Below are positions 6,067-38,030 of a stretch of 64,000 bases of DNA, piece after piece (the stretch's first letter is position 1; each line of letters starts with the position of its first letter). Origin of the DNA: Sphingopyxis sp. DBS4 (GTDB lineage Bacteria > Pseudomonadota > Alphaproteobacteria > Sphingomonadales > Sphingomonadaceae). Where the stretch lies: the NCBI RefSeq assembly GCF_024628865.1, contig NZ_CP102384.1, forward strand, positions 2,987,001-3,051,000, given 5' to 3'. Under the pieces are notes generated by a model. That model was not told where the DNA came from and searched no databases. It was given only the letters and a program-made list of their open reading frames with translations. Position numbers and translations under genes: made by a program.

Positions 6067-6429
6067 TCAATTAATGTATCGCACCCTGACAGAATTCTCA
6101 GAGCCGTCAGGAAGAACGGGATTTTTACGAAATATTCTTGCCGTTATTTCATATTTATATATGTCATCTGTTTTAATGTTTAATAAGTCATTCCCCTGCC
6201 AATAAACAAAAATTTTACCGGATCCGCTACCAGAAAATACTTCTTCCTTACCCCCATCTATAAAAAGAACAACTTTATAACTGTTTGAGCAACAAGCCCC
6301 TTTATCAGTATAACTTACAACCGCGCGAATTTCCCCGTCCGGGGAGACATAGTCCCTAGATAACTTGGAAGATCCACATGATGAAAGAAAAATAATAATA
6401 ATAGATATTGATATCAACCTATTCACCAT
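6067..6429 (-). CDS. Small lipoprotein, candidate immunity partner of Rhs protein 1
   Basis: 120 aa. N-terminal MVNRLISISIIIIFLSSCGS is a lipoprotein signal with lipobox LSSC, so the mature protein should be membrane-anchored. The remainder (SPDGEIRAVVSYTDKGACC, then a beta-rich stretch) is not recognised. The ATG at 6429 lies inside the last codons of the Rhs gene (11-bp overlap), so translation is probably coupled. The gene is clearly AT-richer than the chromosome. In polymorphic toxin loci the gene directly after the toxin tail is usually the immunity gene; a membrane-anchored immunity protein would imply a toxin met in the periplasm or at the membrane (inference). Confidence 0.72.
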   Translation of the reverse strand: MVNRLISISIIIIFLSSCGSSKLSRDYVSPDGEIRAVVSYTDKGACCSNSYKVVLFIDGGKEEVFSGSGSGKIFVYWQGNDLLNIKTDDIYKYEITARIFRKNPVLPDGSENSVRVRYIN

Positions 6430-9400
6430 CGCACCTCTTCTGGGCATAGGAAAATCCAGCCCTTATCATATCTAATTGAGACTCTAGCGATCCATTATCA
6501 ATTAAAGAATAAGCGTTAGCTGCACCTATAACAGTCGGTAAATCGTATCCTAGAGCAGAAGCAGTAGCTCCATAGTTAAAATTTCCGAAATTTTGACCAT
6601 TGCTGTAGCCTTTATTTTTGTAATCCCAATCCCCTCCAGTTTTAACCTTTGAAACAAACCAAGCCCCTGTCCCACCCTCAAGGGCTGGAGCAGCAAAGAT
6701 GCTCCATTGCGCACCATAATTCATTGCTCTCTGGCGTTCAGCTTCACGAATGTTTGCATCTAGCTGATCTTTCCCGGGCCCTCCAGAAGGAACTGCGCAA
6801 GCTTTGGCCTTTTCCCTTTGCGTTCCCTCTCCGCTGCCATTTCGAGGTGCATAATCGATGATGATGTCGATCGTCCTGAATATTCTGCGAATTGAGAGCC
6901 AGGAGCTGCCGCCAGTTACAACTGGACCACTGAGGCCATCATCTACGCATTGCGATTCATCCGCATTGCAGTTTACGCCGAGCCCCAGCGGATCACCGAG
7001 GTTCACCGGGTCGGACCCAACATAGTTATACCAGTTCATGCCGTCGGCGTAACCGATCGGATCGGTCTGCATAAACCGCCCCAGCGTCGGCGAGTAGATG
7101 CGCGCTTTATAATACCACATCCCAAGTTCGGGGAGCCACGTCTGACCAGTGTAGCCGAACCGCCCGATGTTGCCTGGGGCAGGGATGCCATATTCGTCAT
7201 AGGCGTTGATGTGGATGGTGGCACCCGATGAGTCGGTGACGCTCACCACGCTGCCCCGCTCGTCGCGCATAAGGAACCGCCGCGTCGCGCTGCTGATCGT
7301 GCTGCCCTCGTACCACACGATCGGTTCGTCGGTGCCGGGACCATGGACATAGCGCCGCTGCACGGCGTTACTGCCATTATACTCCCCGATCAGATCAACG
7401 CCGTCGTAGAGGAACCGCGTCGTGGTGGGGGATTTCACCGTCTCGTAGAGGCGCCCCAGCGGGTCATAGGCCAGCGTCGTGCTCGGCCCGGTCTTGAGTA
7501 GATTCTCGCTCGTGTAGGTATAGGCGTTCGTTCCGTCATTGGTGAGGTTGCCGCGCCCGTCGTAGGTGAACGCGGTGCTTCCCACATTCATGATCCGGTT
7601 GAGCCCGTTGATCGTGTAGCTGCGGTCGACATTGTAATGCGCCTGCCACGCATAGGCGTCGTTGCTCCGGCTCACGCTCGCGATCTGGTCCGCCGGATTG
7701 TAGGTGAAGCTCTGCGTCAGGTCGTGCGTCGTCGCGGCTCCGCCGAGATTGTTCGTCAGCGTCGACAGCCGCGACGCCGCGTCATAGGCGAAGCTCTGCA
7801 CGCTGCCGTTGCCATAGGTCACGCTCGTGCGCCGCCCGAGGTCGTCATAGGCATAGGTCGCCAGCACCCCGACACCCGAGGCCGCCCCATTCTCGCGGAT
7901 CTTCGTCACATTCCCCGCTGGGTCGTAATCATAGGTCAGCGTCAGCACCCCGCCCGGGTAGCTCATCGTCAGCCGCTGACCCGCCGCGTCATATGTGTAG
8001 CCGGTCGTCCCCAGCGGCCCCGTCTGGCTCGTCAGACGCCCCAGCGCGTCCTGCACGAAGCTCAACGTCTGCGTCCCCTGCACCACCCCTGTCGCGCGGC
8101 CGAGCAGGTCGTAGCTGTAGCTCGTGTCGGGCTCGGTTCCCGGAAGGTCCTTCGCCGTCACCCGCCCCAGCGCGTCGTACGTGTAGCCGATGCTCGTCCC
8201 GTCGCGCAGCCGCCGCTGCGTCACGCTGCTCCGCGCGTCATAAGTGAGTTGCTCGTAATCGCTCGCATTGCTGCTGTTCACCCCCTGCGTCGTCACCGGA
8301 TAGCGCGTCTGCCACAGGCGGTCGAAACCGTCGTAGATATAGGTCGTGCGGTTGTTCTCCCCGTCGACGACATAGCTCAGCTGGCCGTTCGCGGTATAGG
8401 CGCTGGTCACGGCGTTCGCCGCCTCCGCCGTCCCCACCGCCGTCTCGACCTTCGTCACCTGCCCCGCATCGTCGTAGCTCGTCCGCGTGATCCGGTCGGG
8501 GCCCGCGCTCCCCGTCGTCCCCGCGGTGCAGGCGCTCGCCGGCAGCGATGCGAACACCGCCGGGTTCATCCGCACCGCCGCGCAGCCGAGACGCCCCAGC
8601 GCGTCATAGCTATATTGCGTCAGCCCATAGGTCGTGCTGCCCGATACCAGCTTGCTCACGCTCGGCCGGTGGTTGGCGTCGTAGGTGACTGTCTGTTTAT
8701 AGCTCGTCGCAAACGCGGCCCAGTTCGTATCCGACGTGCCCGTCACCGTGCCATAATCGATCTCGATCAGGTCGCCGGCGGCGGTATAGATATAGCGGAC
8801 GGCGCTGCGCACCCGCGCTCCGGCGCCGTCAGGGTCGGGCGATATCGTTCCCGTCAGACGGCTATTGGCATCATAACGATAGCTCGTCGTGTCCGCGCTG
8901 CCCGCCAGCGGCCCGTCGATCGTGAGCAGATTGCCGCGCGCGTCATAGCTCATCGTCGAGGTCGCGCTGACGCTGCCGTTGCCCGCCGCATTGGTGATCG
9001 AGGTCATGTTGCCGTTGGTGTCATAGGCCATGACCGTCTTGACCTCGTCGGCCGTCCCCGCGCAGCTCGCCGTCGTGCGGCACTGCGATATGCCGGTCAC
9101 CTTGTAGGCGCCCGCGACCTGCGTGTAGCTGTAGCGGATCTGCGGCGACACCCCGCCGACCGCAGGCCCGGTGACGCTCGTCACCCCGCCGTGCGTCGCG
9201 TCATAGACATAGCTGGTGACCTTCCCCAGCGGGTCGGTGACGCTGGTCGGCTTGTTGCAGGTCAACGGGTTCGAGCAGGTCGCGGGGAAAGCGGCGGTGC
9301 TGACGATGTCGGCGAGGCCCGATCCCGGCTTTGCGACCAGCCGCGTCTCGGTGATGTTGCCGCGACCGTCATAGGTGTATTTGATGTAATTGCCCTCGGG

Positions 9401-10594
9401 GAAGGTCTTGCGCGTCAGCCGCTTCGCCGTGTCATAGGTAAAGCTGGTCGTGTCGCCGTTTTCGTCGGTGATCGAATCGGGCCTGCCGATCCCCAGCGTG
9501 TTGACGATCACCCGCGTCTTGCCGTTGGGATCGGTGATCGTGATCGTCCGCGTGCTCCCCGTCACCGACGTCGAATAGGTCCGCGTCACCCCGTTCTTGG
9601 TCGCGGAGGTGACCGAGCCGCCGCTGCTCGTCGTATCGAGCGACGGGGCGGTGTCGCCGGGCTGCTGGACGCTGCCATCGGTCACCGTCGTCACCTCGCC
9701 CGACGGGTCGGTCACCTCGGTGACGCCGGTCGACGGGGTCGCATAGCTCACCGTCGATTGCGGCACCGTCGTACTGACCGCGGTGTTGTAGAAGCTTGCG
9801 GAAGTGCGCGTGGACCACGACGCGGGCGGCGGCGCGCTGCCTCCCCCACCGACAGGCCCGCCGCCGCTGCTCGCATAGGTGAACTTGATCCGATAGCCGT
9901 AGCCGTTAGTGATCATCCACAGCCGCTTGCTGTAAATTTTTACCGGCTGCGTCCCCTGCGGCACACCCGGATAGCTGTAGAGCTGGAACGACAGCGTGAC
10001 TGTACGCCCGTCGGGCGCAGTGATCGTGGTCGGCAGCAGTTCGCAGCTCAATGCCGTGCCTTCCGAGCCGCAGAAGCTGTTGAGGAGTCCGTCGGAGCCG
10101 CCGGGCGTATTCTGATCGGTGAAGGTCACCGATGTGCCGTCGGGGCGGCGGTAGGTATAGCTGTTGGAGCCGCCGGTCAGCGTCGCGCCGTCGGACTTGC
10201 TCGAAACGCCGTTGACGAACGTGTCGCCGGTCCCGTCAGCCAGGCCGATGCGGATGGTCGTCGTCGTTCCGCTCCGCGTCAGGATGAAATAATAGCCGTC
10301 CCACTGCGTCGGCGCGAACTGGTTGTTCTGGCGCACGAGCGAGAGCTTCGCATCGCCCGAGCCGATCGACGCCTCGGGCACGTCGAGGACGAGGTCGCCG
10401 GTAATCACGTCGACCCCGTTCGCGTCGAGATTGCGGAACGCGGGCGACGTCTGCGCCAGCACCGCCTGCGGCCCGCAGGCTCCGGCCAGCAACAGCAGCG
10501 CGGCCGCCGCGCGCACGATCCAGTCGCCGATCCGCCAGCAGCCGGTCCGTCCCCCGGCCCGCTTCCCGATCCCGCCGTCGCCCCGATTTCGCAT
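6419..10594 (-). CDS. Rhs-repeat polymorphic toxin 1 (toxin-44-like C-terminus)
   Basis: 1391 aa. A long N-terminus with a hydrophobic segment (WIVRAAAALLLLAGACG) ends in VLAQ, consistent with Sec export. A beta-rich N-terminal part is followed by some thirty YD/Rhs repeats (YDALGRL, YDANSRL, YDDLGRR types) and the Rhs-associated core (about residues 1090-1206, with [20 protein letters not shown] and YVGSDPVNLGDPLG). The variable tail (about 1207-1391, encoded at 6419-6976) includes GAWFVSKV, GGDWDYKNKGY and FGNFNYGATASALGYD. This resembles the polymorphic toxin type 44 family, a predicted RNase (match from memory). The tail is AT-richer than the repeats. There is no PAAR domain. The small YD-repeat gene lies 38 bp upstream and the lipoprotein gene overlaps downstream. 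Confidence 0.9.
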   Translation of the reverse strand: MRNRGDGGIGKRAGGRTGCWRIGDWIVRAAAALLLLAGACGPQAVLAQTSPAFRNLDANGVDVITGDLVLDVPEASIGSGDAKLSLVRQNNQFAPTQWDGYYFILTRSGTTTTIRIGLADGTGDTFVNGVSSKSDGATLTGGSNSYTYRRPDGTSVTFTDQNTPGGSDGLLNSFCGSEGTALSCELLPTTITAPDGRTVTLSFQLYSYPGVPQGTQPVKIYSKRLWMITNGYGYRIKFTYASSGGGPVGGGGSAPPPASWSTRTSASFYNTAVSTTVPQSTVSYATPSTGVTEVTDPSGEVTTVTDGSVQQPGDTAPSLDTTSSGGSVTSATKNGVTRTYSTSVTGSTRTITITDPNGKTRVIVNTLGIGRPDSITDENGDTTSFTYDTAKRLTRKTFPEGNYIKYTYDGRGNITETRLVAKPGSGLADIVSTAAFPATCSNPLTCNKPTSVTDPLGKVTSYVYDATHGGVTSVTGPAVGGVSPQIRYSYTQVAGAYKVTGISQCRTTASCAGTADEVKTVMAYDTNGNMTSITNAAGNGSVSATSTMSYDARGNLLTIDGPLAGSADTTSYRYDANSRLTGTISPDPDGAGARVRSAVRYIYTAAGDLIEIDYGTVTGTSDTNWAAFATSYKQTVTYDANHRPSVSKLVSGSTTYGLTQYSYDALGRLGCAAVRMNPAVFASLPASACTAGTTGSAGPDRITRTSYDDAGQVTKVETAVGTAEAANAVTSAYTANGQLSYVVDGENNRTTYIYDGFDRLWQTRYPVTTQGVNSSNASDYEQLTYDARSSVTQRRLRDGTSIGYTYDALGRVTAKDLPGTEPDTSYSYDLLGRATGVVQGTQTLSFVQDALGRLTSQTGPLGTTGYTYDAAGQRLTMSYPGGVLTLTYDYDPAGNVTKIRENGAASGVGVLATYAYDDLGRRTSVTYGNGSVQSFAYDAASRLSTLTNNLGGAATTHDLTQSFTYNPADQIASVSRSNDAYAWQAHYNVDRSYTINGLNRIMNVGSTAFTYDGRGNLTNDGTNAYTYTSENLLKTGPSTTLAYDPLGRLYETVKSPTTTRFLYDGVDLIGEYNGSNAVQRRYVHGPGTDEPIVWYEGSTISSATRRFLMRDERGSVVSVTDSSGATIHINAYDEYGIPAPGNIGRFGYTGQTWLPELGMWYYKARIYSPTLGRFMQTDPIGYADGMNWYNYVGSDPVNLGDPLGLGVNCNADESQCVDDGLSGPVVTGGSSWLSIRRIFRTIDIIIDYAPRNGSGEGTQREKAKACAVPSGGPGKDQLDANIREAERQRAMNYGAQWSIFAAPALEGGTGAWFVSKVKTGGDWDYKNKGYSNGQNFGNFNYGATASALGYDLPTVIGAANAYSLIDNGSLESQLDMIRAGFSYAQKRCDGE

Positions 10595-10632
10595 CCGCTT
10601 CCCCCTTTGCCGAAAAACCCCGTCGCGTTCGA

Positions 10633-10857
10633 TCAGGGCGGCGGATTGGGCGAATTGGTTACCTTTAGCCGGGTGCGGTTGTCGGCCTTGTCGTGCGTAT
10701 ATTCGACGGTGACATTGTTGTTCACCGTGCCGGTGCGAACCACCTTCACCAGCCGGCCCCTGGCATCATAGCTGTAGGTGACGGTTTCCGATGCGAAGGC
10801 TGGTGTTGCCACCGCCAACAATGCCATTCCGGCTATCGATCCGCGAACCATGTTCAT
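10633..10857 (-). CDS. Small secreted YD-repeat protein upstream of Rhs 1
   Basis: 74 aa from the ATG at 10857 (MNMVRGSIAG), with a clear Sec signal peptide ending in ATPAFA. The mature part is a single Rhs unit, TVTYSYDARGRLVKVVRTGT followed by VEYTHDKADNRTRLKV, and a short proline end. ATG at 10851 is an equal alternative start, and upstream there is a purine-rich GAGGGGAG. It lies 38 bp before the Rhs gene on the same strand. A gene of the same design precedes the second Rhs gene, so the pair is conserved as a unit; a role as an export partner, chaperone or split first repeat is possible but unproven. Confidence 0.75.
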   Translation of the reverse strand: MNMVRGSIAGMALLAVATPAFASETVTYSYDARGRLVKVVRTGTVNNNVTVEYTHDKADNRTRLKVTNSPNPPP

Positions 10858-11016
10858 GCGAAGCCGCTCCCCTCTTCGCGCCGAACCTCGAAAGGGACTC
10901 GGCTCTATTCCCAAGGGCTATCGTGCCAAGCAATTGTAGGAAAGGCAGATTCCGCCTCCAAACCCCACAATCGTCACCGATATGGTTTCATCGGAAAACG
11001 GATGTCGAGGTACGCG

Positions 11017-11397
11017 CTATCGCTGCCGTGCTTGCGGCACCGAGGCGCCCGCATAAGGATCATAAGCCGCAGGCGACGGAGCCGAGGCCGGTAGCTGGCC
11101 TGCCAAGGGGCTTGGATCGGACGCCGCAACCGCCCTTTGCTGGCCATCCGCTCTGCCCAGTCCCGTCAGCGCTGCCGCGATGCTGGCGGCCCCGAACAGG
11201 ATGAAGCATCCCAGCACGACCGTAATGCCGCGCCGCAGTTCGAGTCTTCCGGCAAGCATCATCAACCCGATGGCGGCAACCGCGATCACTGCGACCGTGG
11301 TTGCAACACTTCCCAAAGCTGCTCCCTGAACCCAGGCAACACCCTCTGCAATCGGGCGGCTGCCGGTCGGATCAGTAAGCGAGGAGGAAGAATACAT
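11017..11397 (-). CDS. VirB2/TrbC-like pilin, divergent second copy
   Basis: 126 aa with two hydrophobic helices, GSVATTVAVIAVAAIGLMML and GITVVLGCFILFGAASIAAA, separated by a short basic loop (AGRLELRRG). This is the cyclic-pilin-like VirB2/TrbC topology. It shares GCFILFGAASI and the loop pattern with the virB2 gene that starts 178 bp away on the opposite strand, so it looks like a diverged duplicate. Unlike that copy it has no clear signal peptide (it starts MYSSSSLTDPTGSRP) and carries a longer proline/alanine-rich tail. It may be a minor pilin or a decaying copy. Confidence 0.75.
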   Translation of the reverse strand: MYSSSSLTDPTGSRPIAEGVAWVQGAALGSVATTVAVIAVAAIGLMMLAGRLELRRGITVVLGCFILFGAASIAAALTGLGRADGQQRAVAASDPSPLAGQLPASAPSPAAYDPYAGASVPQARQR

Positions 11398-11574
11398 TGC
11401 GATCCCGCAGCTGCGCTATTTGGCCGAGCCGATCTAATCATGACGCAGCCCAGGGAACAAGCCGCATTAACGCACTATAATGGTGATGATTTGTCCTTGG
11501 CAGAGCTGTGCGGCGCGGGTTAGACAATGCTGAAGACTCGCTGCAGGGCAGCCGCGAGCGCAAATGGGGGACGC
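11398..11574. promoter_or_regulatory. Divergent promoter region between two virB2-like genes
   Basis: This 177-bp gap must hold the promoter of the whole virB2-virB11 series, because all later genes overlap or are nearly contiguous, and also that of the divergent pilin gene. A GGGGGA ribosome-binding site ends 4 bases before the ATG at 11575. No clear -35/-10 pair or operator was picked out by eye. Confidence 0.5.
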
Positions 11575-11889
11575 ATGAAGGGGAAGATCGCAGGTTGGAC
11601 CGGTGCCATGATCGGGCTCTTCCATGCGGCTACCGCTCACGCCCAGGAACTCGCTGATCCCGCCGGCTCGGGCGTACTGGTTTCCGCAGTGCGCTGGCTC
11701 GAAGGCACGCTGCTCGGCACGGTCGCGACGGTCGTCGCGGTGATCGCGGTCGCGACGGTCGGCTTCCTGATGCTGACCGGACGGATCAACTGGCGTTATG
11801 GCGCGACGGTCATCCTCGGTTGCTTCATCCTGTTCGGCGCCGCGAGCATCGTCGCGGGCATCCAGTCCACCGCCAGCCTGGGCCGCTGA
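11575..11889 (+). CDS. virB2: VirB2/TrbC-family major pilin of the type IV secretion system
   Basis: 104 aa from the ATG at 11575, which has a good GGGGGA ribosome site. A Sec signal peptide (MKGKIAGWTGAMIGLFHAAT, cleavage after AHA) is followed by the two hydrophobic helices of VirB2 pilins, GTVATVVAVIAVATVGFLML and GATVILGCFILFGAASIVAG. It is exported, processed and polymerised into the conjugative pilus. It opens the cluster; virB3 starts 3 bp after its stop. Confidence 0.9.
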   Translation: MKGKIAGWTGAMIGLFHAATAHAQELADPAGSGVLVSAVRWLEGTLLGTVATVVAVIAVATVGFLMLTGRINWRYGATVILGCFILFGAASIVAGIQSTASLGR

Positions 11890-11892
11890 GCC

Positions 11893-12177
11893 ATGAATGG
11901 GGTCGAACGCGACTCTGTCTTCGTCGCGCTGACGCGACCGCAAATGTTTGCCGGTGTGACCTACAGCTATTTCGTCGCCAACGCGATCGTGGCAACCGAA
12001 TTGTTCCTGATCTTCAAGACGATCTGGGCGCTCGTCATCGCGCTCATCGTCCATCTCGCGGGCGTGCTGCTGTGCCTGCGCGAACCGCGCTTCTTCGATC
12101 TCTGGCTGACAAGGATCGGCAAGTGCCCGCGGGTGCGTAATTTCTCGATCTGGCGATGCAACTCCTACCGGCCCTGA
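11893..12177 (+). CDS. virB3: VirB3-like inner-membrane protein
   Basis: 94 aa. The N-terminal pattern VFVALTRPQMFAGVTYSYFV is characteristic of VirB3 (short cytosolic segment with ALTRP, then a membrane helix), with a second hydrophobic stretch TIWALVIALIVHLAGVLLCL and a C-terminal LREPRFFDLWL. VirB3 is a small inner-membrane subunit that works with the VirB4 ATPase. Its 3' end overlaps virB4 by 22 bp, which supports coupled translation. Confidence 0.9.
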   Translation: MNGVERDSVFVALTRPQMFAGVTYSYFVANAIVATELFLIFKTIWALVIALIVHLAGVLLCLREPRFFDLWLTRIGKCPRVRNFSIWRCNSYRP

Positions 12178-14525
12178 CCTCCTCGCCCAAGGTCGTTGCA
12201 AGAGAAGCTCCGGCGGGCCGGCATCTGCCCTACAGCCATCATGTCGACGGCCATACGATCGCGACCCGCGACGGCCTGCTCATGCAGGTCATCGCGATGC
12301 GGGGCCTGCTGTTCGAGACCGCCGACACCGAAGAAATCAACTATCGCAAGCGCCTGCGCGATGCGATGCTGCAGGCGATCGGCTCGTCGCGCTTCGCGTT
12401 ATACCATCATATCGTCCGCCGCCGCGTCGACGTCGGGCTCGGTGCGACATTCGACGATGCTTTCTCGGCTAAACTCGATGCCGCCTGGCAAGGCCGGCTC
12501 GACCGCCGCCAGCTCTTCGTTAATGACCTCTATCTCACGCTGATCAGACGGCCCTTGCAGGGGCGCGTCGGCCTGCTCGATGGCTTGCGGGAAAAGCTCA
12601 GCCGGACAAGCTCGCCCGTCGAGACGGCGGCGCAGGATTTGCGCCAGCTCGACGCGGCGCGCGAGGCGCTGATAGCTGCGCTCGGCAGCTATGAGCCGAG
12701 ACTGCTGTCGGTGTACGAGGCAGAGGCCGGCCTTTGCTCCGAGCCGCTGGAATTTGTATCAACGCTCTATAATGGCGAGACCCGTCCGGTCCTGCTGCCG
12801 ACGCAGGATATCGGTGCCTATCTCCCCGACCGCCGAATCAGCTTCGGCCAGGAAGCCATCGAGTTGGCGCCTGCCGGTCATGCCGACCGAACCTATCTCG
12901 GCATCGTATCGATCAAGGATTACCCCGGCGAGACGAGCCCCGGCATGTTCGACGAACTGCTCCGGCTTCCGTTCGAACTCACCGTCGCCCAGTCCTTCGG
13001 CTTCATCGAACGCCAGGCCGCGCTTGGGCGGATGAACCTGACGCTCCGCCGGATGCGCTCGGCCGAGGATGAGGCGATGAGCCTGCGCTCCGAGCTTTCG
13101 AACGCGAAAGACGAAGTCGCTGCGGGCCGCTCGGGGTTCGGCGAGCATCATATGACGATCGCGATCCGCGGCGCGTCACCCGACGAAGTCGATGCCGGCG
13201 TCGCTGAAGTTCAGGCATCGCTTGCCGATCTCGGGATCATCGCGGTTCGCGAGGAGATCGCGCTTGAGCCCGCCTTCTGGGCGCAGTTTCCCGGAAACTT
13301 CAAATATATCGCGCGGCGCGGGCTTGTCTCGACGGGCAATTTCGCAGGACTTGCGAGCGGCCATAATTTTGCGCTCGGCCAGCCGCAGGGTAATCACTGG
13401 GGCGAGGCCGTCACCTTGCTCGAGACCACCGCCGCGGGCCCCTATTTCTTCAATTTCCACCAAGGCGACCTCGGCAATTTCACGATCATCGGACCGTCGG
13501 GCTCGGGCAAGACGGTCGCGCTCAACTTCCTGCTCGCGCAGGCGCGCAAGTTCGATCCGCGCATCGTCTTCTTCGACAAGGATCGCGGCGGCGAGTTGTT
13601 CGTCCGCGCGATCGGCGGGCGCTACGATGTCCTGCGCCCCGGTACGCCTTCGGGGCTCAATCCTCTTCAGCTCGAGGATACGGCAGCCAACCGCCAATTC
13701 CTGATCGACTGGCTGGCCCTGCTTGGCGGCACCGCCGATGTCGAAGAGCTGGCGCAGATCAAGGATGCGATCGACGCCAACTATGCGCAGCCGCCGCATC
13801 ATCGCCGACTCCGCCATATCGTCGAACTTTTTCGTGGCGGCCACCGCCCGCATGCCGACGATCTCTGGTCGCGTCTCCGTCCCTGGTGGGGCGACGGTGA
13901 ACATGCCTGGCTCTTCGACAATGAAACGGATGCCACCGACCTCACCGTTCGCTCGGTCGGGTTCGACATGACCCAAATCCTCGACGATCCGGCAGTCCGG
14001 ACGCCGGCGATGATGTATCTCTTCCACCGTGTCGAAGAGCGGCTCGATGGCAGCCCGGCGATCATCGTCGTCGACGAAGGCTGGAAAGCCCTCGACGATG
14101 ATGTGTTCGTGCGCCGGATCAAGGATTGGGAAAAGACCATCCGCAAGCGCAACGGCATCGTCGGCTTTGCGACCCAGAGCGCGCAGGATGCACTCGAAAG
14201 CCGGATTGCGAGCGCGATCATCGAACAGGCCGCGACGCAGATTTTCATGGCAAACCCGAAGGCGCGCGCCGAGGATTATGTCGATGGCTTCGGCCTCACA
14301 CCCCATGAGTATGAACTGGTGCGCTCGCTTCCCGACAGCGCGCATTGCTTCCTCGTCAAACATGGCAATGAAAGCGTCGTCGTCCGCCTGAATCTGACCG
14401 GCGAGCGCGAACTGCTCACGATCCTCTCGGGACGCGAACGGACGGTGCGCCTGCTTGACGAGCTACGCGCCGAACATGGCGACGCACCCGAGGCCTGGTA
14501 TGACGCTCTGATGGAGCGGGCCTGA
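12156..14525 (+). CDS. virB4: VirB4-family type IV secretion ATPase
   Basis: 789 aa, full length for the family. The N-terminal CagE/TrbE/VirB4 domain is followed by a RecA-like ATPase: Walker A GPSGSGKT at about residues 445-453, Walker B IIVVDEGW at about 634-641, and the conserved arginine/glutamine region GFATQSAQDAL. It energises pilus assembly and substrate transfer at the inner-membrane base. It overlaps virB3 by 22 bp and shares the TGATG junction with virB6; there is no room for a virB5 gene between them. Confidence 0.95.
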   Translation: MQLLPALTSSPKVVAREAPAGRHLPYSHHVDGHTIATRDGLLMQVIAMRGLLFETADTEEINYRKRLRDAMLQAIGSSRFALYHHIVRRRVDVGLGATFDDAFSAKLDAAWQGRLDRRQLFVNDLYLTLIRRPLQGRVGLLDGLREKLSRTSSPVETAAQDLRQLDAAREALIAALGSYEPRLLSVYEAEAGLCSEPLEFVSTLYNGETRPVLLPTQDIGAYLPDRRISFGQEAIELAPAGHADRTYLGIVSIKDYPGETSPGMFDELLRLPFELTVAQSFGFIERQAALGRMNLTLRRMRSAEDEAMSLRSELSNAKDEVAAGRSGFGEHHMTIAIRGASPDEVDAGVAEVQASLADLGIIAVREEIALEPAFWAQFPGNFKYIARRGLVSTGNFAGLASGHNFALGQPQGNHWGEAVTLLETTAAGPYFFNFHQGDLGNFTIIGPSGSGKTVALNFLLAQARKFDPRIVFFDKDRGGELFVRAIGGRYDVLRPGTPSGLNPLQLEDTAANRQFLIDWLALLGGTADVEELAQIKDAIDANYAQPPHHRRLRHIVELFRGGHRPHADDLWSRLRPWWGDGEHAWLFDNETDATDLTVRSVGFDMTQILDDPAVRTPAMMYLFHRVEERLDGSPAIIVVDEGWKALDDDVFVRRIKDWEKTIRKRNGIVGFATQSAQDALESRIASAIIEQAATQIFMANPKARAEDYVDGFGLTPHEYELVRSLPDSAHCFLVKHGNESVVVRLNLTGERELLTILSGRERTVRLLDELRAEHGDAPEAWYDALMERA

Positions 14526-17222: not shown

Positions 17223-18322
17223 CGGCACCCGAGACATCGGCCGAGACGCAGGACCAGCCGGTCGAGCGCGGGGTGCTGCCGCGCGTCGCCAAGCCCTCGG
17301 CGGGTCTTTCGACGGTGGCGATCGCTATTGGGGCGGTTGTCGCCGGGGCGGTCTTGTTTTCTGTCCTTGAGGCACGGCGAACCGCCTTGACCGCGCCTGC
17401 CGTGCGCCCCGCGCGCGCCGATCTGCTGGCGGCATCCGATGTGCCGCCGCCGCTCTACATCCCACCCGTGCAGCCGGCGGCTATGGCCATTCCGTTGACG
17501 CCCCCGGCGATTGCGGTGCCGATAACGAAGGCTCCGGATGTGCGGCTCGCGCCCTCGATGCCGCCAGCACCATCGTCTGATCTTCCACCGCCGATATCCT
17601 ATGCCCCGCCGCCTCCCGTGGCGCCGCCCCGGACGGCCTCGGGCGCGATCCTGATCGTCGATGCGTCGCAGCCGCAAGCGGCAGGCGAGCAAGGGACATC
17701 GGCGCCGGGCGGAAGCCAATCGTCCTTGGCAAGCGGCGATATCGCCGCGCGTAGCAGGGCTGGCTCCATGGCCGATCGATCGACGACCGTTCCGCAAGGC
17801 ACGCTCATCCCCGCTGTCCTCGAAACCGCGTTCAACTCGACAGGATCGGGGTTCGCGCGCGCGCTCGTGCAGCGCGACGTGCATGGGTTCGACGGCACGC
17901 GCGTCCTCATCCCGCGCGGCAGCCGGCTGATCGGCGAGTATAAGTCCGAAACCAGCCCCGGGCAGAAGCGCGCCTTCGTGACCTGGACGCGGCTGATCCG
18001 TCCCGATGGGGTGACGATTGCGATCGGGTCGCCCACGACCGACCCCGTCGGCGTCGGCGGGGTTCGTGCCAAGGTGAACAGCCACTTCTTCGAACGGTTC
18101 GCGGGTTCGATCCTGCAGACGGCCATGCTGATCGGCGGCAATCTTGCGGCGCGGTCGGCTGGAGACTCGGTTGTCGTCGCGCTGCCTGGTTCCTTCCCGA
18201 CCGCCGGCACCGCGACGCCTGCAACGCAGATTCCGCCGACGCTGAGCGTTCGCCAGGGGACGAGCATCAGCGTGTTCGTCGCGCGCGATCTCGACTTCAC
18301 CGCGGTCGAGGCGCGGCGATGA
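17219..18322 (+). CDS. virB10: VirB10/TrbI-family protein spanning both membranes
   Basis: 367 aa. A cytosolic N-terminus, one membrane helix (LSTVAIAIGAVVAGAVLFSV), and a proline-rich periplasmic stretch (about 70-150) lead to the conserved C-terminal domain with VPQGTLIPAVLETAFNSTGS, GTRVLIPRGSRLIGEY and RQGTSISVFVARDLDF. VirB10 senses ATP use at the inner membrane and gates the outer-membrane pore. It overlaps virB9 and virB11 by 4 bp each. Confidence 0.95.
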   Translation: MTAPETSAETQDQPVERGVLPRVAKPSAGLSTVAIAIGAVVAGAVLFSVLEARRTALTAPAVRPARADLLAASDVPPPLYIPPVQPAAMAIPLTPPAIAVPITKAPDVRLAPSMPPAPSSDLPPPISYAPPPPVAPPRTASGAILIVDASQPQAAGEQGTSAPGGSQSSLASGDIAARSRAGSMADRSTTVPQGTLIPAVLETAFNSTGSGFARALVQRDVHGFDGTRVLIPRGSRLIGEYKSETSPGQKRAFVTWTRLIRPDGVTIAIGSPTTDPVGVGGVRAKVNSHFFERFAGSILQTAMLIGGNLAARSAGDSVVVALPGSFPTAGTATPATQIPPTLSVRQGTSISVFVARDLDFTAVEARR

Positions 18323-19305
18323 CGGCAGGGCTTGCCGATCGGGTTTATTTAAGCAGCTATCTTGCGCCGCTAGCCTTCGCGCTTGATCGCGAAGACGTCA
18401 CCGACATCTATATCAACCGTCCCGGCGAGCTCTGGATCGAGACACTGGGTGGCAAGATCGAGCGGCATGATGTGCCGGCGCTCGATGCTGCGCTACTCCC
18501 GCGGCTTGCGCGGCAGGTGGCGGCGCTTAGTCACCAGGGGATCAGCCGCGAGCATCCTTTGCTCTCCGCAAGCCTGCCCGATGGCTCGCGTATCCAGATT
18601 GTCGCTCCGCCTGCGACGCGCGGCGAACTGGCGATCGCGATCCGCAAGCATGTCTCGGCAGCGCTGACGCTAGACGATTATGTGTCGGCCGATGCGTTCC
18701 GTAATGTTCGGACCGCTGGCGATGCGCAGTCGGCCGCGCTGGATCGCGTAAGAGGGCTGGTCGATGCCGGCGACGTCGCGGCGGCGCTGCGTGAGGCAGT
18801 GCGGGGCCGGCTCAATATCCTGATCTCGGGCGGCACCTCTTCAGGCAAGACGACCTTTCTCAATGCGCTTATTCGGGAGATCCCAGTCGAAGAGCGGCTG
18901 ATCCTGATCGAGGATACGCCCGAGATCAGGCTGGCGCATGAGAATGCGGTGGGGTTGATTGCAGCGCGGAGTGCGCTCGGCGAGGCTGCTGTCACGGCGA
19001 ACGATCTTGTGTCGGCGTCGCTCCGGATGCGGCCCGATCGGATCATTCTTGGCGAACTGCGTGGACCCGAGGCGTTCGCGTTCCTGCGCGCGATTAATAC
19101 CGGTCATCCTGGATCGATGACGACCATTCACGCCGATAGTGTCGAGCGGGCGTTCGAGCAGCTGGCATTGCTGGTTCTGGAAGGGGGGGCGACCCTGCAA
19201 AGGGAGGATATTCTCGCTTACGTGCGGACGACGGTGGATATCGTGTTGCAATTTAGCCGAGACGTTAGCGGACGGAGCGTCTCGGGGTTGTTTTTGCGTG
19301 ATTAG
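18319..19305 (+). CDS. virB11: VirB11-family traffic ATPase
   Basis: 328 aa hexameric ATPase. Walker A GGTSSGKTT at about residues 170-178, the Asp box ERLILIEDTPEI, Walker B RPDRIILGELRGPEAF and the His box NTGHPGSMTTIHAD are all present, and the N-terminal domain begins near DREDVTDIYINRPGELWIE. It switches the machine between pilus building and substrate transfer. It is the last gene of the virB unit; no VirD4-type coupling gene follows. Confidence 0.95.
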   Translation: MTAGLADRVYLSSYLAPLAFALDREDVTDIYINRPGELWIETLGGKIERHDVPALDAALLPRLARQVAALSHQGISREHPLLSASLPDGSRIQIVAPPATRGELAIAIRKHVSAALTLDDYVSADAFRNVRTAGDAQSAALDRVRGLVDAGDVAAALREAVRGRLNILISGGTSSGKTTFLNALIREIPVEERLILIEDTPEIRLAHENAVGLIAARSALGEAAVTANDLVSASLRMRPDRIILGELRGPEAFAFLRAINTGHPGSMTTIHADSVERAFEQLALLVLEGGATLQREDILAYVRTTVDIVLQFSRDVSGRSVSGLFLRD

Positions 19306-19539
19306 CCGGACCTCGACAAACGACGTAGCTTCAATTCTAGGCTGCGGTTCATTTATCGCACCGTCATCGCAATCCCCTCGGAATTCCATTTTATAGACTA
19401 ATATCTCACCTTGCCAGACTTAGGAGCGGGAAATCACGGGAAAATCGTACAGTTTATTCTAGAAAAACGAATTAACAAAGTAAAGAATACATGAATTTGC
19501 TTGGGAATACAACATCAATTGAGTGATATTTGCAAGATA

Positions 19540-19938
19540 TCATAGATTAGATTCGTTTATCTCAAATTCATTCATAGAAAATTCATCCTTTTCATAGTTT
19601 AAAATTACATTTTCCATGTCCGGTATTTTAATATTATCCTTAAAGTACAATATTATTTCTTCATCGTCACTATGATAAATAATAGATATGCTTTTCCTGT
19701 CGCCTATAGTTAAAAATATATCATCATCCATCAATCTAGACATAACACTAAATGGTACATTTTCATAGTTTTTCGTCTTATTAACCACTATCTGGTTGTT
19801 CTCTGATGTGAATATCTCTGCACGGATCGCGGATATTTTTCTAATATTATTCAACTTAAATATACTTTTTGCAAAATCCTTGTAGGTTTTACGGAAATTT
19901 TTTGAGGACTTTTCAATTTTGTAAGATCTCATTTTCAA
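19540..19938 (-). CDS. Small cytosolic protein, candidate immunity partner of Rhs protein 2
   Basis: 132 aa, acidic in the second half, with no signal peptide or membrane helix (MKMRSYKIEKSSKNFRKTYK at the start, and FSVMSRLMDDDIFLTIGDRK mid-protein). It is not recognised. The gene is strongly AT-rich against a GC-rich genome, and begins 2 bp after the stop of the Rhs 2 gene, exactly where a cognate immunity gene is expected. A cytosolic immunity protein would fit a nuclease toxin (inference). An ATG two codons later is an alternative start. Confidence 0.75.
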   Translation of the reverse strand: MKMRSYKIEKSSKNFRKTYKDFAKSIFKLNNIRKISAIRAEIFTSENNQIVVNKTKNYENVPFSVMSRLMDDDIFLTIGDRKSISIIYHSDDEEIILYFKDNIKIPDMENVILNYEKDEFSMNEFEINESNL

Positions 19939-19940
19939 TT

Positions 19941-22900
19941 TTAGTCTCCAAGTCGAAATGTCATGTCCCTAGCGTAAGTGCCAGAGCGCGTTGTTTTACT
20001 GTAGAGGGAGGCAAGAGATGACCCAGCTTTCCACACGCCTCCACTGTGACTATCTCTATCTGGCGAGATATATCTTTCGCTTCGGGGCGCTTTCATATTT
20101 ACGTACACGGGTCGATCATGCGATTCAAAATTTGTTTTTCTGTACCCCAGTGCACGAGCAACGGCGTCTGCCTCTCGATTAGTCTGAAATCGTGTTCTTT
20201 GCAGAGCTGAGACTCTTGCTTCCAGTGTCTCAACCCGCGTAGTCGTCACGGGTCCAGTGCTCTGAATCTCCGGGGCGCCCGGCTGAAGAATGTTCAACTG
20301 CCCGCGAGCAATCTCTTCCCGCACATTAAGAATACCTCCCGAGCCTGGCGGACCTCGCCTCGATCCGCCTCGGCCGCGAGGCTGAAATTCCTGAGATTTG
20401 GCAATTTGTTGGTTTCGCAGTGCATCAAAGGCAACCCCTGACGCACCAGAACAGCTATTCACGCTGCCGATCCTGGAGCCGCACCCGTCCATGGAAACCT
20501 CGCCGGTCGGATCAACACCGTTTACCGGATCATTGCCAACATAGGCATAGAGGTTCATCTGATCGTCGTAGCCGACGGGATCGGTTTGGAGGAATCTCCC
20601 CAGCGGAGGCGAGTAAATGCGCGCCTTGTAGTGATACATCCCGATCTCTGGTAGCCAGGCTTGGCCGGTGTATTGGAAGCGACCGCTGTTGCTCGGGCCG
20701 GGCATTCCATATTCGTCATATAGGTTGATGGAGGGCGCCCCGCCGGCACCGTTCGTCGCCGCGACGATCGAGCCCTGATGGTTGGCATGAAGCCACCGTG
20801 CAGTTCCACTCTGATACCAGACCAGCGGGTCGTCAAATCCGGTGTCGCTGCCATGCACATAGCGCGCGGCCAAGCTTCCCGCGGCGTCATATTCGCCGAC
20901 GAGCGCATCGCCGTCATAAAGGAAGCGGGTATTCGCAGTGCCCTTCACAACCTGCCAGAGCCGCCCTAGCGGGTCATAGGTGAGCGTCGTCCCGTTCGAC
21001 ACCGAGATCAGCCGATTCTCCGCGTCATAGGCATAGGTGCTGATGCCATCGGCCGTCAGATTGCCATTGGCGTCATAGGTGTAGGAAATGCCCCTCACAC
21101 TCGCATATTGATTGAGTCCGTTGGCCGCATAGGCCAGCGTCGTCGGCGCCGCATCCTTCCACGCATAGTCGATATTGTTCCGGGTAAAGCCGACGATCTG
21201 CGAAGCCGGATTATAGGTGATCGGGCTGACGGTCACATTGCCCGCGCCGCCGACATAGCTATCCGACTGGCTATTAAGCCGCCCCAGCGTGTCGTAGCCG
21301 TAGGTAACGCCGCTACCGAACCGTTCCGAGCGGCCGGCGATCAGACCCCGCGCATTATAGCTGAACTGATCGAGCGGAACCGATGTGCCTGCACCCTCAT
21401 AAACTCCGCTAAGCCGACCAAGCGCGTCATAGGCATAGGTGAAAGCCTGGCCATCGGGGTGAGTAAGCTGCGATCGATTGCCTGCCTCATCATAGGTCAT
21501 GGCGAGGGCCTTGGAGAACCCGCCCATGCTGATCGTGCTCGTCCGCAGCAGTCCGAACCCGTCATAACTGCTGGTCACACCGTCACCGCCGGTGGCGCCA
21601 TCGAACTTAGCGGTCAGCTGGTTGCCCATCATGTCATAGCGATAATAGACATCGCGGGTGGCGGTCGCGGGCGCGCAGGCGCCGACCTGGATCGGCGCGC
21701 AGCCATCGGGCACGACCTTCGAGATCATCCGATTGAGCCCGTCGAACGCGAAGGTCAGTGTACGCCCATCGCGGCGACGCAGCGAAGTCCGGTTGCCGAC
21801 GGCATTATAGCCATATTGCTCGTAATCGGTCGTGCTGACCGTTCCCGCTGCGGTCTTGCTCGGAAAATACCAGTGCGATTGACGGTCGTGCCCGTCATAC
21901 TGGAGCTGCGCCTTGTTGCCGTTTGCGTCGGTCACGAACTGCTGCTTGCCGTTCAGCGTATAGGTGTAGCGCACATAATTCTGAACGAGCGGGGTACCGA
22001 AGGCGCGTTGGACGGTGAGCAGTTGCCCGGCGCTATCATAATCATTGTTGGTGATGCGGTCGGGGCCTTGGGTGCCTTGCGTGCCAAGCGAGCAGGCCCC
22101 CGTCGCGGTGGCCGCCGGAAGCGCCGCCATGTTCATGCGCACCGCAGTACAGTCCGCAAGTCCGCGATTGAGGAACGACCGGTCGGTGACCTTCAGCGTC
22201 TGGCCGCCTGCCGACACCGCCTCGCGGATCAGGTAGCGCCGGCTGTCGAAGATCATGTCGGTTCGCTCGATCACCGTCAGCGTGCTGCTCGACGCGTCTG
22301 GCAACGTCCCCGTCTCGACAGCCGTCACCTGGTCGTCGGAATCGCGATAGGTGAAGCGCTTCGCGATCCGCAGGCCATTGGGCGCGAGGGCTCCGATCTC
22401 CCACGTTTTTCGGCCGATGACATCGTATCGAAAATATTGCGCGTCATCCGCGCCGGGGCGCGGGCCATCGATCGACAGCACCCGGCCCGCCGCGTCATAA
22501 CTATAACTGGTCTCGCGTGTCTGTCCGCTCGCAAGATCGACGAGGCGCTCGACCGCGGGTAGGAAGGTCTTTTCCCAATAGTCCGTTTCGGTGCGGAACT
22601 CGCCGTTGGTGCCGCAGGTGGTGCCTTCGCCGCAGACGCGCGTCCGCGTCTTGCGCGAGAGGATGCCGGCGCCGGTGTCGAACGGTGTATATTCGGCATA
22701 GGTCTTGCGCCGCACACCATCGGCATCGGCGGGATCGGTCTGCTCGGTGAGTTGGCCGTTGGCGTTGTACGCATAGTCGGTTTGCCGGTTCAGCGCATCG
22801 CGCGACCAGGTCGGCCGCCAGCACATGACCGTGCCACCACATTCGACAAAAAGACCCGTCGGCGAGAGATAGGGCGTCAGATTGACATAGACCTGCTCGC

Positions 22901-24224
22901 TCAGGCTCGCGAGGCCGGAACCCGGCTTCGCGACCGTGGTCTTCGATATGATATTGCCGGCCTTGTCCCAGCCGAGCGACACCGAGTTGCCTTCGGGCTG
23001 CGTGATCTGCGTGACCCGCATCTTGGTATCATAGGTGTAGCTCGTCTGCCGGCCCAACTCGTCCTTGACGCCGGTGATCAGATTGCGGCCGCCCGCCGCG
23101 CTGTTGATCGCTGTCCGCGCGATCGTATAGGTCTTGTGATAACCATCGGGACCGGTGGCATCGACCCTGTCGAAGACGTAATTGCCGAGCCCGGTATAAT
23201 AGGTGGGGTTCGTGTAGCTATAGCTCCACGATACACCGTCGCGGTTGACCGTGCCGATCATCGGCGCCGCACTGGGGAGACCGGTTGCCGCTGTCACCGT
23301 CAGCGTTGGAGAGGCTTCGGTCGGCAAGGTCCTTGTGAAGCTCGTCTCCTCGACATCGCTCCCGAGATTGCCAAGATTATAGCCCTGATAGAGACGGCCC
23401 GCGAGATCGGTGACCGTCCCGTTGCCGTTGTTGGTCAGTCGGCCCAGCGGTGTCGACGGATCACTCGCCTTGTAGAGCGAGACGACGCTCGGCGTGCCCC
23501 AGCCGATCTGGGTCAGATCGTTATTCTGGTAGCTGATGCTGATATAATAGCCGAGATTGGTAGATATTTTGCTGGGCCGATAGAAGGTGCGGCTGTAGGG
23601 ATCAGTGGTCAGCTTCGCCGTGTCATATTCGTAAGATATGACTTCGCCGTCCGGATATTCGATCTTCGAGGCGTAGAAGAGGCGAAGATGCTGTTGCTGC
23701 TGCGTGGGTGTCGGCAGCGTGTAGATATGGGTCAGGGTTAGTGAGTAGCGTTCGCCTGAACCCGACCTTCGATAATAGTTGCCCCCGAATGCGAGGTACG
23801 ATCCTGAGCCGGTAACGCTTTCGCACTGCTTGTGATCCGTAACCTCGAACGAACAGCGGAAGGATTCCGAGACGCCATCCGCTGTGTGGACGGTCCACGA
23901 ACCGGACCATTCGCCGCCGTCGAAATCCCGGATCTGCTCGCCCTTGATATAGGGTGCGGCATTCTGAACCCGGTCGAACTTCAGACGCGGCGCCGCCGGC
24001 ACCGAAAGGACGAGCGCATCGGGCGTCATCTTGCCGTCGATGATGTTCACCCCGTTTCGATCGGGCTCTATCTGAATAGGCGAGATCGTATTCGGGATGT
24101 CCTGGGCGCTTAGAACTTGCGGCGTGGTAACGGCGAATCCTGTGAAGACCAAGGCCACGGCATTGCGCTTGATTGACAAAAGTGCTTGAAAGAAGCTCTT
24201 TGAACCGGAAAACATATCACGCAT
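19941..24224 (-). CDS. Rhs-repeat polymorphic toxin 2 (Ntox21-like C-terminus)
   Basis: 1427 aa. N-terminal signal peptide ([20 protein letters not shown]), beta-rich N-terminal region, many YD repeats, and the Rhs core ([34 protein letters not shown]). The core is closely similar to that of Rhs 1, but the tail (about residues 1242-1427, encoded at 19941-20501) is unrelated. Its last 85 residues, with [36 protein letters not shown] and [10 protein letters not shown], resemble the Ntox21 / toxin-C family of BECR-fold RNases (match from memory). No PAAR domain. The small YD-repeat gene lies 34 bp upstream and the candidate immunity gene 2 bp downstream. Confidence 0.9.
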
Positions 24225-24258
24225 GGCCCATCCATAAATAATATAGAATCAAAAATGA

Positions 24259-24834
24259 CTATGCACAGTCCGTCAATTTACCAAATCCGGTAAATGTAAT
24301 AAATCCGGTAGACTGTTCCCCTACAGAATTTTTTACCACATATTCGATGCTTTTAGCGCCACCCTGAAAAAGACTAAGGGTTACATTATTCCCGGATATC
24401 TGCGGCTTGGCACCCTGACCAGTAGCGACGGAGACGAGGGTGAGCGGATATTTTCCGTTCGGCGACGTGTCGTTCAGGACGGGATTGATCGTGACTTGAT
24501 CGCAGCGGTGCACCTGTCCGAGATTGTCCGTGTTCGCAATCGGATCTCCGGTTGGCGTAGGAGTCGGGGTGGGCGTTGGTGTGGGAGTAGGCGTAGGGGT
24601 CGAACTCGAACAGGTTCCCCCAGCTGCGCCGACCCTGTACGATGTCCGATTGCCGGCAGGGTCGAAACAGGCTTGCCTGACGGTTCCATTGTTCGGGCCG
24701 CCGCTATCGGTCGCCTGCACCAGTCTGCCAAGGGCGTCATATTCATAGCTGACCGTCTGGGCGCTTGAGGCTTGTAAGGAACTCACAGCAAGCGCCAGGG
24801 CAGAACAGGACAGCAGCACCGCATTCGATCGCAC
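24259..24834 (-). CDS. Secreted YD-repeat protein with Pro-Thr linker, upstream of Rhs 2
   Basis: 191 aa from a GTG at 24834, chosen because a strong GGGGGAA ribosome site lies 7 bases upstream; the longer frame would start with TTG. After a signal peptide (ending SLQASSAQ) comes one Rhs unit (VSYEYDALGRLVQATDSGGP), a Pro-Thr linker, and a C-terminal domain (GDPIANTDNLGQVHRCDQVT onward) that resembles the Ig/cadherin-like repeats of adhesins. It lies 34 bp upstream of the Rhs gene. It is the counterpart of the 74-aa protein before Rhs 1, with an extra domain. Confidence 0.75.
   Translation of the reverse strand: MRSNAVLLSCSALALAVSSLQASSAQTVSYEYDALGRLVQATDSGGPNNGTVRQACFDPAGNRTSYRVGAAGGTCSSSTPTPTPTPTPTPTPTPTGDPIANTDNLGQVHRCDQVTINPVLNDTSPNGKYPLTLVSVATGQGAKPQISGNNVTLSLFQGGAKSIEYVVKNSVGEQSTGFITFTGFGKLTDCA
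24551..24600. repeat. Short tandem repeat encoding the Pro-Thr linker
   Basis: Eight degenerate 6-bp units (GTNGGN type on the plus strand) encode an alternating Thr-Pro run on the minus strand. Unit number could change by slippage without shifting the reading frame. Confidence 0.85.
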
Positions 24835-25770: not shown

Positions 25771-25782
25771 GATCGTTTCTCC

Positions 25783-28765: not shown

Positions 28766-28783
28766 CATCTACGCCACCAAGCC

Positions 28784-38029: not shown

Positions 38030-38030
38030 C
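37992..38030 (-). repeat. Right copy of terminal inverted repeat / candidate attachment site
   Basis: On the plus strand it reads AGTTATAATAAAGGTGTGCC then CGGGTTCGCGGGAATGACG. Its complement matches the sequence at 5196-5234 at about 34 of 39 positions. The recombinase stop codon lies inside it, and the chromosomal hydrolase gene follows at 38125. It is the natural candidate for the right end of the element. Confidence 0.6.

What the first reader, a model, noticed from the sequence alone, without database searches (positions are those of the whole stretch)
6067..24834. Two complete Rhs toxin cassettes flank one type IV secretion cluster
Both sides of the virB genes carry the same minus-strand three-gene order: a small secreted YD-repeat protein, a giant Rhs protein with a signal peptide, and an AT-rich short gene at the toxin's 3' end. 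The cores are alike but the toxin tails and the last genes are unrelated, the pattern expected of polymorphic toxin diversification (seen). Sec-exported Rhs proteins without PAAR, sitting beside a VirB system inside a mobile element, suggest an interbacterial weapon used together with DNA transfer; whether the T4SS takes part is speculation.
Basis: partly seen in the sequence, partly recalled or inferred. Interest (0 to 1): 0.78.

Follow-up and report, generated by a model that had tools for sequence, protein, structure and literature searches.

The report
Rhs toxins paired with VirB exporter
Two large bacterial toxin genes sit on either side of a stripped-down type IV secretion machine, and the same pairing recurs in many related bacteria, which suggests that the machine releases the toxins rather than moving DNA.

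Summary
Two minus-strand cassettes (small exported YD protein, Rhs protein with a Sec-like signal, AT-rich last gene) flank virB2-3-4-6-8-9-10-11 in a 33-kb serine-recombinase island of a Sphingopyxis chromosome. One tail is Ntox21, the other a sub-threshold Ntox44.

In 249 family genomes, Rhs lies within 20 kb of this VirB4 class at 19 of 40 loci, but at 0 of 97 and 0 of 13 listed loci of two other classes. Of 80 named loci, 33 have Rhs and 1 a VirD4 coupling protein; 12 conjugative controls have 0 and 11. A second VirB2 paralogue with a DPYAGAS tail tracks Rhs, also away from virB.

"Used together with DNA transfer" is not supported: two carriers show no convincing coupling protein (three families) and no MobA/MobL relaxase genome-wide. 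My best reading is a Ptl-like two-step exporter: Sec, then a VirD4-less VirB machine. Secretion and toxicity are untested; 13 of 29 genus Rhs hits lie away from this VirB class, and 21 of 40 such VirB loci lack nearby Rhs.

The parts
5194..5240 (.). Left island end: half of a palindromic repeat, then a GTTATAAC arm
   Evidence: sequence; relatives' left match ends at 5108-5172
6067..6447 (-). Last gene of triplet 1, candidate immunity lipoprotein, AT-rich
   Evidence: no Pfam, NCBIfam or PADLOC hit
6419..10594 (-). Rhs1, 1391 aa, Sec-like signal, YD repeats, Rhs core; tail about 6422-6979, sub-threshold Ntox44
   Evidence: DxK and GNxxxG motifs of Ntox44 (listed in PMC3482391) present by eye
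10633..10914 (-). Small exported YD protein 1 (start codon uncertain; signal-bearing Met inside)
11017..11397 (-). VirB2b: second VirB2 paralogue, no visible signal peptide, YDPYAGASVP near the C-terminus
11527..11889 (+). VirB2 pilin
11893..12177 (+). VirB3
12156..14525 (+). VirB4 ATPase (closest solved relative TrwK)
14525..15742 (+). VirB6
15739..16524 (+). VirB8
16521..17222 (+). VirB9
17219..18322 (+). VirB10
18319..19305 (+). VirB11 ATPase
19540..19938 (-). Last gene of triplet 2, candidate immunity, AT-rich, no visible signal
19941..24224 (-). Rhs2, 1427 aa, Sec-like signal, Rhs core; tail 19944-20501 = Ntox21, listed motif residues present by eye
   Evidence: motifs from PMC3482391
24259..24855 (-). 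Small exported YD protein 2 with a Big_9 Ig domain
25069..25770 (-). DUF6118 protein beside the relaxase
25783..28755 (-). TraA-type MobA/MobL relaxase-helicase
36374..38029 (+). Large serine recombinase of the island
37990..38031 (.). Right island end: GTTATAAT arm, then the other half of the palindromic repeat
   Evidence: relatives' right match starts at 38056-38156

Best explanation
The island carries a VirD4-less type IV secretion machine and its toxins. SHOWN: the VirB gene set; Rhs proteins with Sec-like signals; the recurrent physical pairing of Rhs with this VirB class; the missing coupling protein; polymorphic tails followed by another small gene. INFERRED: (1) Rhs is made as a precursor and crosses the inner membrane by Sec; (2) it folds in the periplasm into a closed Rhs shell round its C-terminal toxin, in some loci from two separately exported halves; (3) the VirB2-11 machine, with no VirB1, VirB5 or VirD4 gene in its cluster, takes the folded shell from the periplasm across the outer membrane, as the Bordetella Ptl system does for its toxin, with the second pilin paralogue VirB2b as a possible adaptor; (4) the tail (Ntox21 RNase-type, or Ntox44) acts in a competing cell; (5) the last gene of each cassette protects the producer.
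For: Proximity: 19 of 40 class-A VirB4 loci have Rhs within 20 kb, class B 0 of 97, class C 0 of 13 listed; random placement expects 0.74 of 24 genomes, 18 observed. Genus: 8 of 9 class-A genomes have Rhs within 20 kb; the ninth is on an 8.6-kb contig. Recurrence: at least 13 changes of Rhs adjacency on a VirB4 tree of 107 rows, 91 coded. Coupling protein: 1 of 80 named class-A loci against 11 of 12 conjugative controls. VirB2b: Rhs in 12 of 13 genomes with a full-length VirB2b match against 6 of 67 without; three VirB2b copies away from virB follow an Rhs cassette, two of those Rhs being interrupted or fragmentary. Signals: 41 of 43 long Rhs pass a lax home-made signal rule that 23 of 108 VirB4 frames also pass. 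Plasmids: of 1602 records with a VirB4 relative one is at 60% or more; it is typed non-mobilizable and has Rhs upstream of virB2 and a second VirB2 gene directly after virB11. Precedent: Ptl lacks VirB1, VirB5 and VirD4 and exports a Sec-delivered toxin assembled in the periplasm (PMC3070162 passages; PMC12857230 section 20).
Against: 13 of 29 genus Rhs hits are away from class-A VirB4, and six of 18 Rhs genomes have neither class-A nor 73% VirB4. 21 of 40 class-A loci have no Rhs within 20 kb, 47 of 80 named loci show none in their flanks, many cut, and the eight 73% Sphingopyxis loci have neither Rhs nor VirD4. The island carries a relaxase. The own genome has coupling proteins elsewhere (nearest on this contig about 263 kb away) that could act in trans. 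PF10412 gives weak partial matches, some above cut-off, in every genome. An Rhs shell may be too large for the channel. No expression, secretion or toxicity data exist. Genome-count tests are not corrected for kinship except.
Confidence: 0.5

Rival explanations
1. Shared cargo: Rhs cassettes and this VirB class are both accessory genes that settle in the same islands; Rhs leaves the cell by another route and the VirB machine does something else.
For: 13 of 29 genus Rhs hits are unlinked. Rhs also occurs beside a related serine recombinase without virB in view in G023:C2 (Rhs at the contig end) and, as a fragment, in G067. A third triplet, 87% identical to Rhs1 over 1268 columns, sits elsewhere in the own chromosome with no virB in the 19 kb fetched.
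Against: Conjugative VirB classes show no Rhs nearby (0 of 12 and 0 of 13 listed). Pairing persists across different flanks and orientations in many genera and on a plasmid. VirB2b tracks Rhs even away from virB.
Confidence: 0.27
2. Conjugation element with a linked weapon: the VirB system transfers the island with a coupling protein supplied in trans, and Rhs kills or excludes neighbours during mating.
For: TraA relaxase in the island and near class-A loci of G020, G041 and G073; coupling proteins elsewhere in six of nine genomes.
Against: No MobA/MobL relaxase and no convincing coupling protein in G007 or G023 (other relaxase families not tested); coupling protein in 1 of 80 named loci; one class-A record among 1602 VirB4-bearing plasmids.
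Confidence: 0.1
3. Pilus machine: the VirD4-less VirB system with two pilin paralogues builds a surface pilus for contact, as proposed for Bartonella Trw, and Rhs toxins only benefit from the contact.
For: Two VirB2 paralogues and no VirD4; the Trw proposal is described in PMC12857230 section 20.
Against: No VirB5 tip gene in the cluster and no array of variable pilins; VirB2b lacks a visible signal peptide.
Confidence: 0.1

Closest known systems
Bordetella Ptl system (VirD4-less T4SS)
   Same: virB2-3-4-6-8-9-10-11 set; no VirB1, VirB5 or VirD4 in the cluster; substrate carries Sec signals and lies next to the machine
   Different: Substrate is an Rhs polymorphic toxin with a candidate immunity gene; a second VirB2 paralogue; no VirB7 in the operon; lies in a mobile island here; secretion untested
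Rhs toxins of T6SS, and TcB/TcC shells
   Same: YD repeats and Rhs-associated core before a variable C-terminal toxin; closest solved chains 8h8a, 8h8b, 7q97, more weakly TccC and YenC2
   Different: Sec-like signal, no PAAR; in 10 loci the shell is encoded as two genes
Antibacterial VirB/VirD4 T4SS of Xanthomonas and Stenotrophomonas
   Same: VirB machine linked to antibacterial toxins (Stenotrophomonas paper PMC11253643 seen in a search listing only)
   Different: Those use VirD4 and a C-terminal recruitment domain (recalled); here no VirD4 nearby, and substrates carry Sec-like signals
T4SS neighbour of a CDI/Rhs-like toxin in Sphingobium chlorophenolicum, mentioned in PMC9111745 (passages)
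   Same: Single earlier hint of such a pairing in a sphingomonad
   Different: One remark; no VirD4, pilin or frequency analysis in the passages seen

Membership tests
Rhs polymorphic toxins | YD repeats plus Rhs-associated core | tested here: met
   RHS_repeat 180 and 140 bits; Rhs_assc_core 69 and 74 bits
Rhs polymorphic toxins | conserved core, variable tail | tested here: met
   938 of 946 core pairs alike, 2 of 946 tail pairs alike, 44 of 98 Rhs hits usable
Rhs polymorphic toxins | recognised toxin domain in the tail | tested here: inconclusive
   Ntox21 met (78 bits); Ntox44 below cut-off (22.4 of 24)
Rhs polymorphic toxins | immunity gene after the tail | not testable with these tools
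   A following gene exists (40 of 44); protection untested
T6SS Rhs effectors | PAAR or VgrG context, no Sec signal | tested here: not met
   No PAAR hit in either Rhs; Sec-like signals
VirD4-less (Ptl-like) T4SS | VirB core present, coupling protein absent from the locus | tested here: met
VirD4-less (Ptl-like) T4SS | no VirB1 or VirB5 in the operon | tested here: met
   virB ORFs abut or overlap from 11527 to 19305, leaving no room
VirD4-less (Ptl-like) T4SS | VirB7 lipoprotein present | tested here: inconclusive
   No convincing candidate inside the operon; a 79-aa lipoprotein ORF lies at 33596-33832 (pattern scan, 35-160 aa)
VirD4-less (Ptl-like) T4SS | secretes a Sec-exported substrate | not testable with these tools
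   needs a virB mutant
Integrative and conjugative element | recombinase, relaxase, T4SS and T4CP together | tested here: not met
   Recombinase, relaxase and VirB present; no T4CP in the first 40 kb of the window, which holds the island

The most novel reading that the evidence does not exclude
A new trafficking route for polymorphic toxins: in Sphingomonadales and some Caulobacterales a distinct VirD4-less VirB2-11 lineage, often with a dedicated second pilin (DPYAGAS tail), is a specialised exporter of Sec-delivered, periplasm-assembled Rhs shells, some of them built from two separately exported halves.
Probability: 0.42. Interest if true: 0.88.

Novelty: new variant of a known kind. Interest (0 to 1): 0.78.

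Why it matters
[quoted passage not shown] If this VirB class does that job, Ptl would no longer stand nearly alone as a periplasmic-substrate T4SS, and harmless soil and water bacteria would offer a safe model for it. The VirB2b tail and the two-gene Rhs form give direct handles for tests.

Tried and rejected
A DNA search of plasmids with window 11400-30000 found 22 records, nearly all matching only the relaxase region. Pfam on 20 tails from other loci named 4 (DUF2380, VanY/Peptidase_M15, a sub-threshold phospholipase A2, Tox-REase-7) and gave one spurious-looking hit; 10 of 10 in one batch gave nothing. A strict YD regular expression missed many Rhs and was replaced by an HMM. The idea that a different large neighbour gene replaces Rhs in the 73% VirB clade was dropped: the shared neighbour looks by eye like a chromosomal TolB/amidohydrolase-type protein. 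Reading the ~890-aa Rhs of the second island as simply broken was rejected: 10 loci share the split point region, a conserved end of the first half, and a new signal on the second. The palindromic repeats that dominate the hit lists are a different family from the one at the island ends. PADLOC found nothing for the last genes. Literature: ten searches listed no paper whose title or abstract describes Rhs export by a VirB system in sphingomonads; passages of six papers were read and section 20 of PMC12857230 in full, and the only hint was one remark in PMC9111745. Subscription papers and preprints were not searched.
Full report
WHAT IS THERE. The window is part of a 4.36-Mb contig of a 4.9-Mb genome. 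The genus is Sphingopyxis by inference: relative G061 has the same 8613-base contig, with VirB4 at the same place, as a record named Sphingopyxis sp. LK2115, and G032 contig C9 has the length of a Sphingopyxis sp. HIX contig. Rhs1 and Rhs2 align over 1285 columns at 33% identity up to the Rhs-associated core and then diverge. Rhs2 ends in Ntox21 (78 bits) and keeps, by eye, the residues listed for that family in PMC3482391. Rhs1 ends in a sub-threshold Ntox44 (22.4 bits, cut-off 24) with that family's DxK and GNxxxG motifs. Both last genes are AT-rich (GC3 0.31 and 0.32), and the first has a lipoprotein-type signal. Neither hits Pfam, NCBIfam or PADLOC.

THE ISLAND. Of 11 relatives fetched at this site, 9 show both flanks 21-1616 bases apart (7 at most 173), so the segment from about 5.2 to 38.03 kb is an insertion; in two the right flank was not in the stretch fetched. 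Each end holds one half of a palindromic repeat (TCATTCCCGC ... GCGGGAATGA), next to arms GTTATAAC and GTTATAAT that face each other. Intact copies of the repeat stand at window 40952-41026 and in L008; nine copies of either 10-mer occur in 140 kb of own genome looked at. The serine recombinase ORF runs through the right end. A second, smaller island in the same chromosome (C1 about 2.622-2.637 Mb) has the same kind of ends, an 87% identical recombinase, virB9-10-11 and an Rhs. A third complete triplet (C1 about 827-832 kb) has an Rhs 87% identical to Rhs1 over 1268 columns, another tail end and another lipoprotein, and no virB in the 19 kb fetched.

HOW OFTEN RHS SITS BESIDE THIS VIRB. In the 80 genus genomes searched, Rhs (E 1e-60 or better) gives 29 hits in 18 genomes and VirB4 gives 30 rows in 27 genomes. 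VirB4 at 88% identity or more occurs in 9 genomes; 8 have Rhs within 20 kb and the ninth is on an 8.6-kb contig. By coordinates 14 of the 29 Rhs hits are within 20 kb of such a VirB4, one is beside the virB9-11 remnant, one is on a short contig (G061), and 13 are elsewhere, some of these at contig ends. VirB4 at about 69-74% (8 genomes) and about 40% (12 loci) has no Rhs in the stretches fetched. In 249 genomes sampled from 91 genera of the family, class A (60% or more; bands set by me) has Rhs within 20 kb at 19 of 40 loci, class B (53-59%) at 0 of 97, and class C (about 40%) at 0 of 13 listed rows; the class C list was cut by the tool and at most four candidates per genome were scored. By genome, 24 of 39 class-A carriers and 21 of 210 others have Rhs (Fisher 1e-11, not corrected for kinship). 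Random placement expects 0.74 of the 24 genomes with both to show them within 20 kb; 18 do.

NAMED LOCI. The 80 best of 166 VirB4 loci found in GTDB genomes (identity 65-95%; Sphingomonas, Stakelama, Hephaestia, Brevundimonas, Erythrobacter and others) were fetched with up to 10 kb on each side. They are not independent of the genus set: L117, L154, L155 and L157 match G061, G076, G032 and G026. Rhs of at least 150 aa is found in 33 of 80; of 52 loci with at least 7 kb upstream and 3.5 kb downstream, 22 have Rhs, 6 of them on both sides. A coupling protein is found in 1 of 80 and a strong TraA hit in 1 of 80. In 12 control loci of the 40% class, 11 have a coupling protein beside virB11, the twelfth contig is cut, and none has Rhs; the eight 73% loci have neither. 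On a VirB4 tree of 107 rows (91 coded; control rows were coded Rhs-absent without a flank test) Rhs adjacency changes at least 13 times.

NO COUPLING PROTEIN. Across the nine Sphingopyxis genomes, PF02534 and PF12696 are absent from G007, G023 and G045; PF10412 gives there only weak partial matches (25 bits or less, a few above the 20.5-bit cut-off, including VirB4 itself), which I read as other ATPases. G007 and G045 are single contigs. G007 and G023 also lack MobA/MobL relaxases; other relaxase families were not tested. Of 1602 plasmid records with a VirB4 relative (E 1e-100) one is at 60% or more: a Sphingomonas aerolata plasmid typed non-mobilizable, with a 1436-aa Rhs frame upstream of virB2 and a second VirB2 gene directly after virB11.

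A SECOND PILIN. VirB2b (window 11017-11397) is a VirB2 paralogue without a visible signal peptide and with DPYAGAS near its C-terminus, invariant in the ten aligned. In the genus a match reaching position 122 or beyond occurs in 13 of 80 genomes: the nine class-A ones and four with the 73% VirB (G001's holds one stop; G054's second copy varies in the motif). Rhs is present in 12 of these 13 and in 6 of the other 67; the exception is G058. In G032 and twice in G054 VirB2b follows an Rhs cassette, with at most the AT-rich gene between and no virB genes near; one G054 Rhs is interrupted by a stop and the other is a fragment. In G058 and G001 it stands without Rhs, in G058 beside a bioA-type gene as in G032 and G054. 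In the named loci 22 have both, 12 VirB2b only, 11 Rhs only and 35 neither (several VirB2b-only contigs are short). With kinship allowed for, VirB2b goes the same way as Rhs in 6.9 of 11 independent pairs and the other way in 0.5 (median p 0.039, range 0.008-0.375).

POLYMORPHISM AND EXPORT. From 98 Rhs HMM hits, T4SS-linked or not, 44 had a complete 3' end and a recognisable core end; Rhs1 itself was missed by the pattern, and one of the 44 (L173) is a core fragment. Their cores align in 938 of 946 pairs, their tails in 2. A following gene was found for 40; its GC3 is under 0.5 in 28 of 44, but my picking rule favoured low-GC3 frames. A lax home-made signal rule is passed by 41 of 43 long Rhs (36 with a start near the frame's beginning) and by 23 of 108 VirB4 frames (15 likewise); at least one Rhs pass is plainly not an N-terminus. 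In ten loci, nine beside class-A VirB4 and one beside the virB9-11 remnant, the Rhs is two genes: a first half with [IV]SET...C at its very end, and a second half with its own signal that resumes at Rhs2 residue 538-599 (592-599 in eight); the first half shows a signal by eye in eight, one is cut and one unclear. Rhs frames of similar short length also occur in family genomes without class A. A small YD ORF lies upstream in 37 of 61 Rhs with room for it.

MECHANISM. The VirB2-3-4-6-8-9-10-11 set without VirB1, VirB5 and VirD4, beside a Sec-signal toxin, is the Ptl plan (PMC3070162 passages; PMC12857230 section 20). I infer Sec export, periplasmic assembly of the Rhs shell, and outer-membrane passage by VirB, with VirB2b as a candidate adaptor. 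No step of this was tested. The main doubts are the many unlinked Rhs, the class-A loci without Rhs, and the size of an Rhs shell.

LITERATURE. [quoted passage not shown] PMC9111745 (passages) mentions one T4SS neighbour in Sphingobium chlorophenolicum. PMC11077975 (passages) discusses Rhs-like modules under the heading of a repurposed Rickettsia T4SS. Nothing else turned up in the listings of the ten searches.

Noticed in passing
window 5194-5240 and 37990-38031; L006 about 2115 and 17096: Both serine-recombinase islands end inside a palindromic intergenic repeat of which intact copies exist elsewhere in the genome, so it may offer several attachment sites.
   Followed up: partly
L006:7825-12115 and nine other loci: Two-gene Rhs: second half with its own signal, conserved split region, and in seven of ten a 33-63 base overlap of the two open frames.
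   Followed up: partly
L209-L216: A VirB2-11 cluster (VirB4 69-74%) in eight Sphingopyxis genomes with neither VirD4 nor Rhs beside it; substrate unknown.
   Followed up: partly
class B rows: A widespread further VirB4 class (53-59% identity) in 95 of 249 family genomes, never within 20 kb of a listed Rhs.
   Followed up: no
window 33872-34828 (-): Nucleotidyltransferase plus HEPN protein, related genes near TraA in G041, G073 and G045; weak PADLOC hit PDC-S09.
   Followed up: partly
window 31578-33047 (-): 489-aa ORF with sigma-70 region 2 and 4 domains at its C-terminus, overlapped by another minus-strand ORF.
   Followed up: no
window 5731-5955 (-): Fragment that looks like the start of an IS110-type transposase (recalled, no Pfam hit) beside the last gene of triplet 1.
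   Followed up: no
L151: Two Rhs genes flank a complete virB set and a second, partial, inverted virB2-3-4.
   Followed up: no
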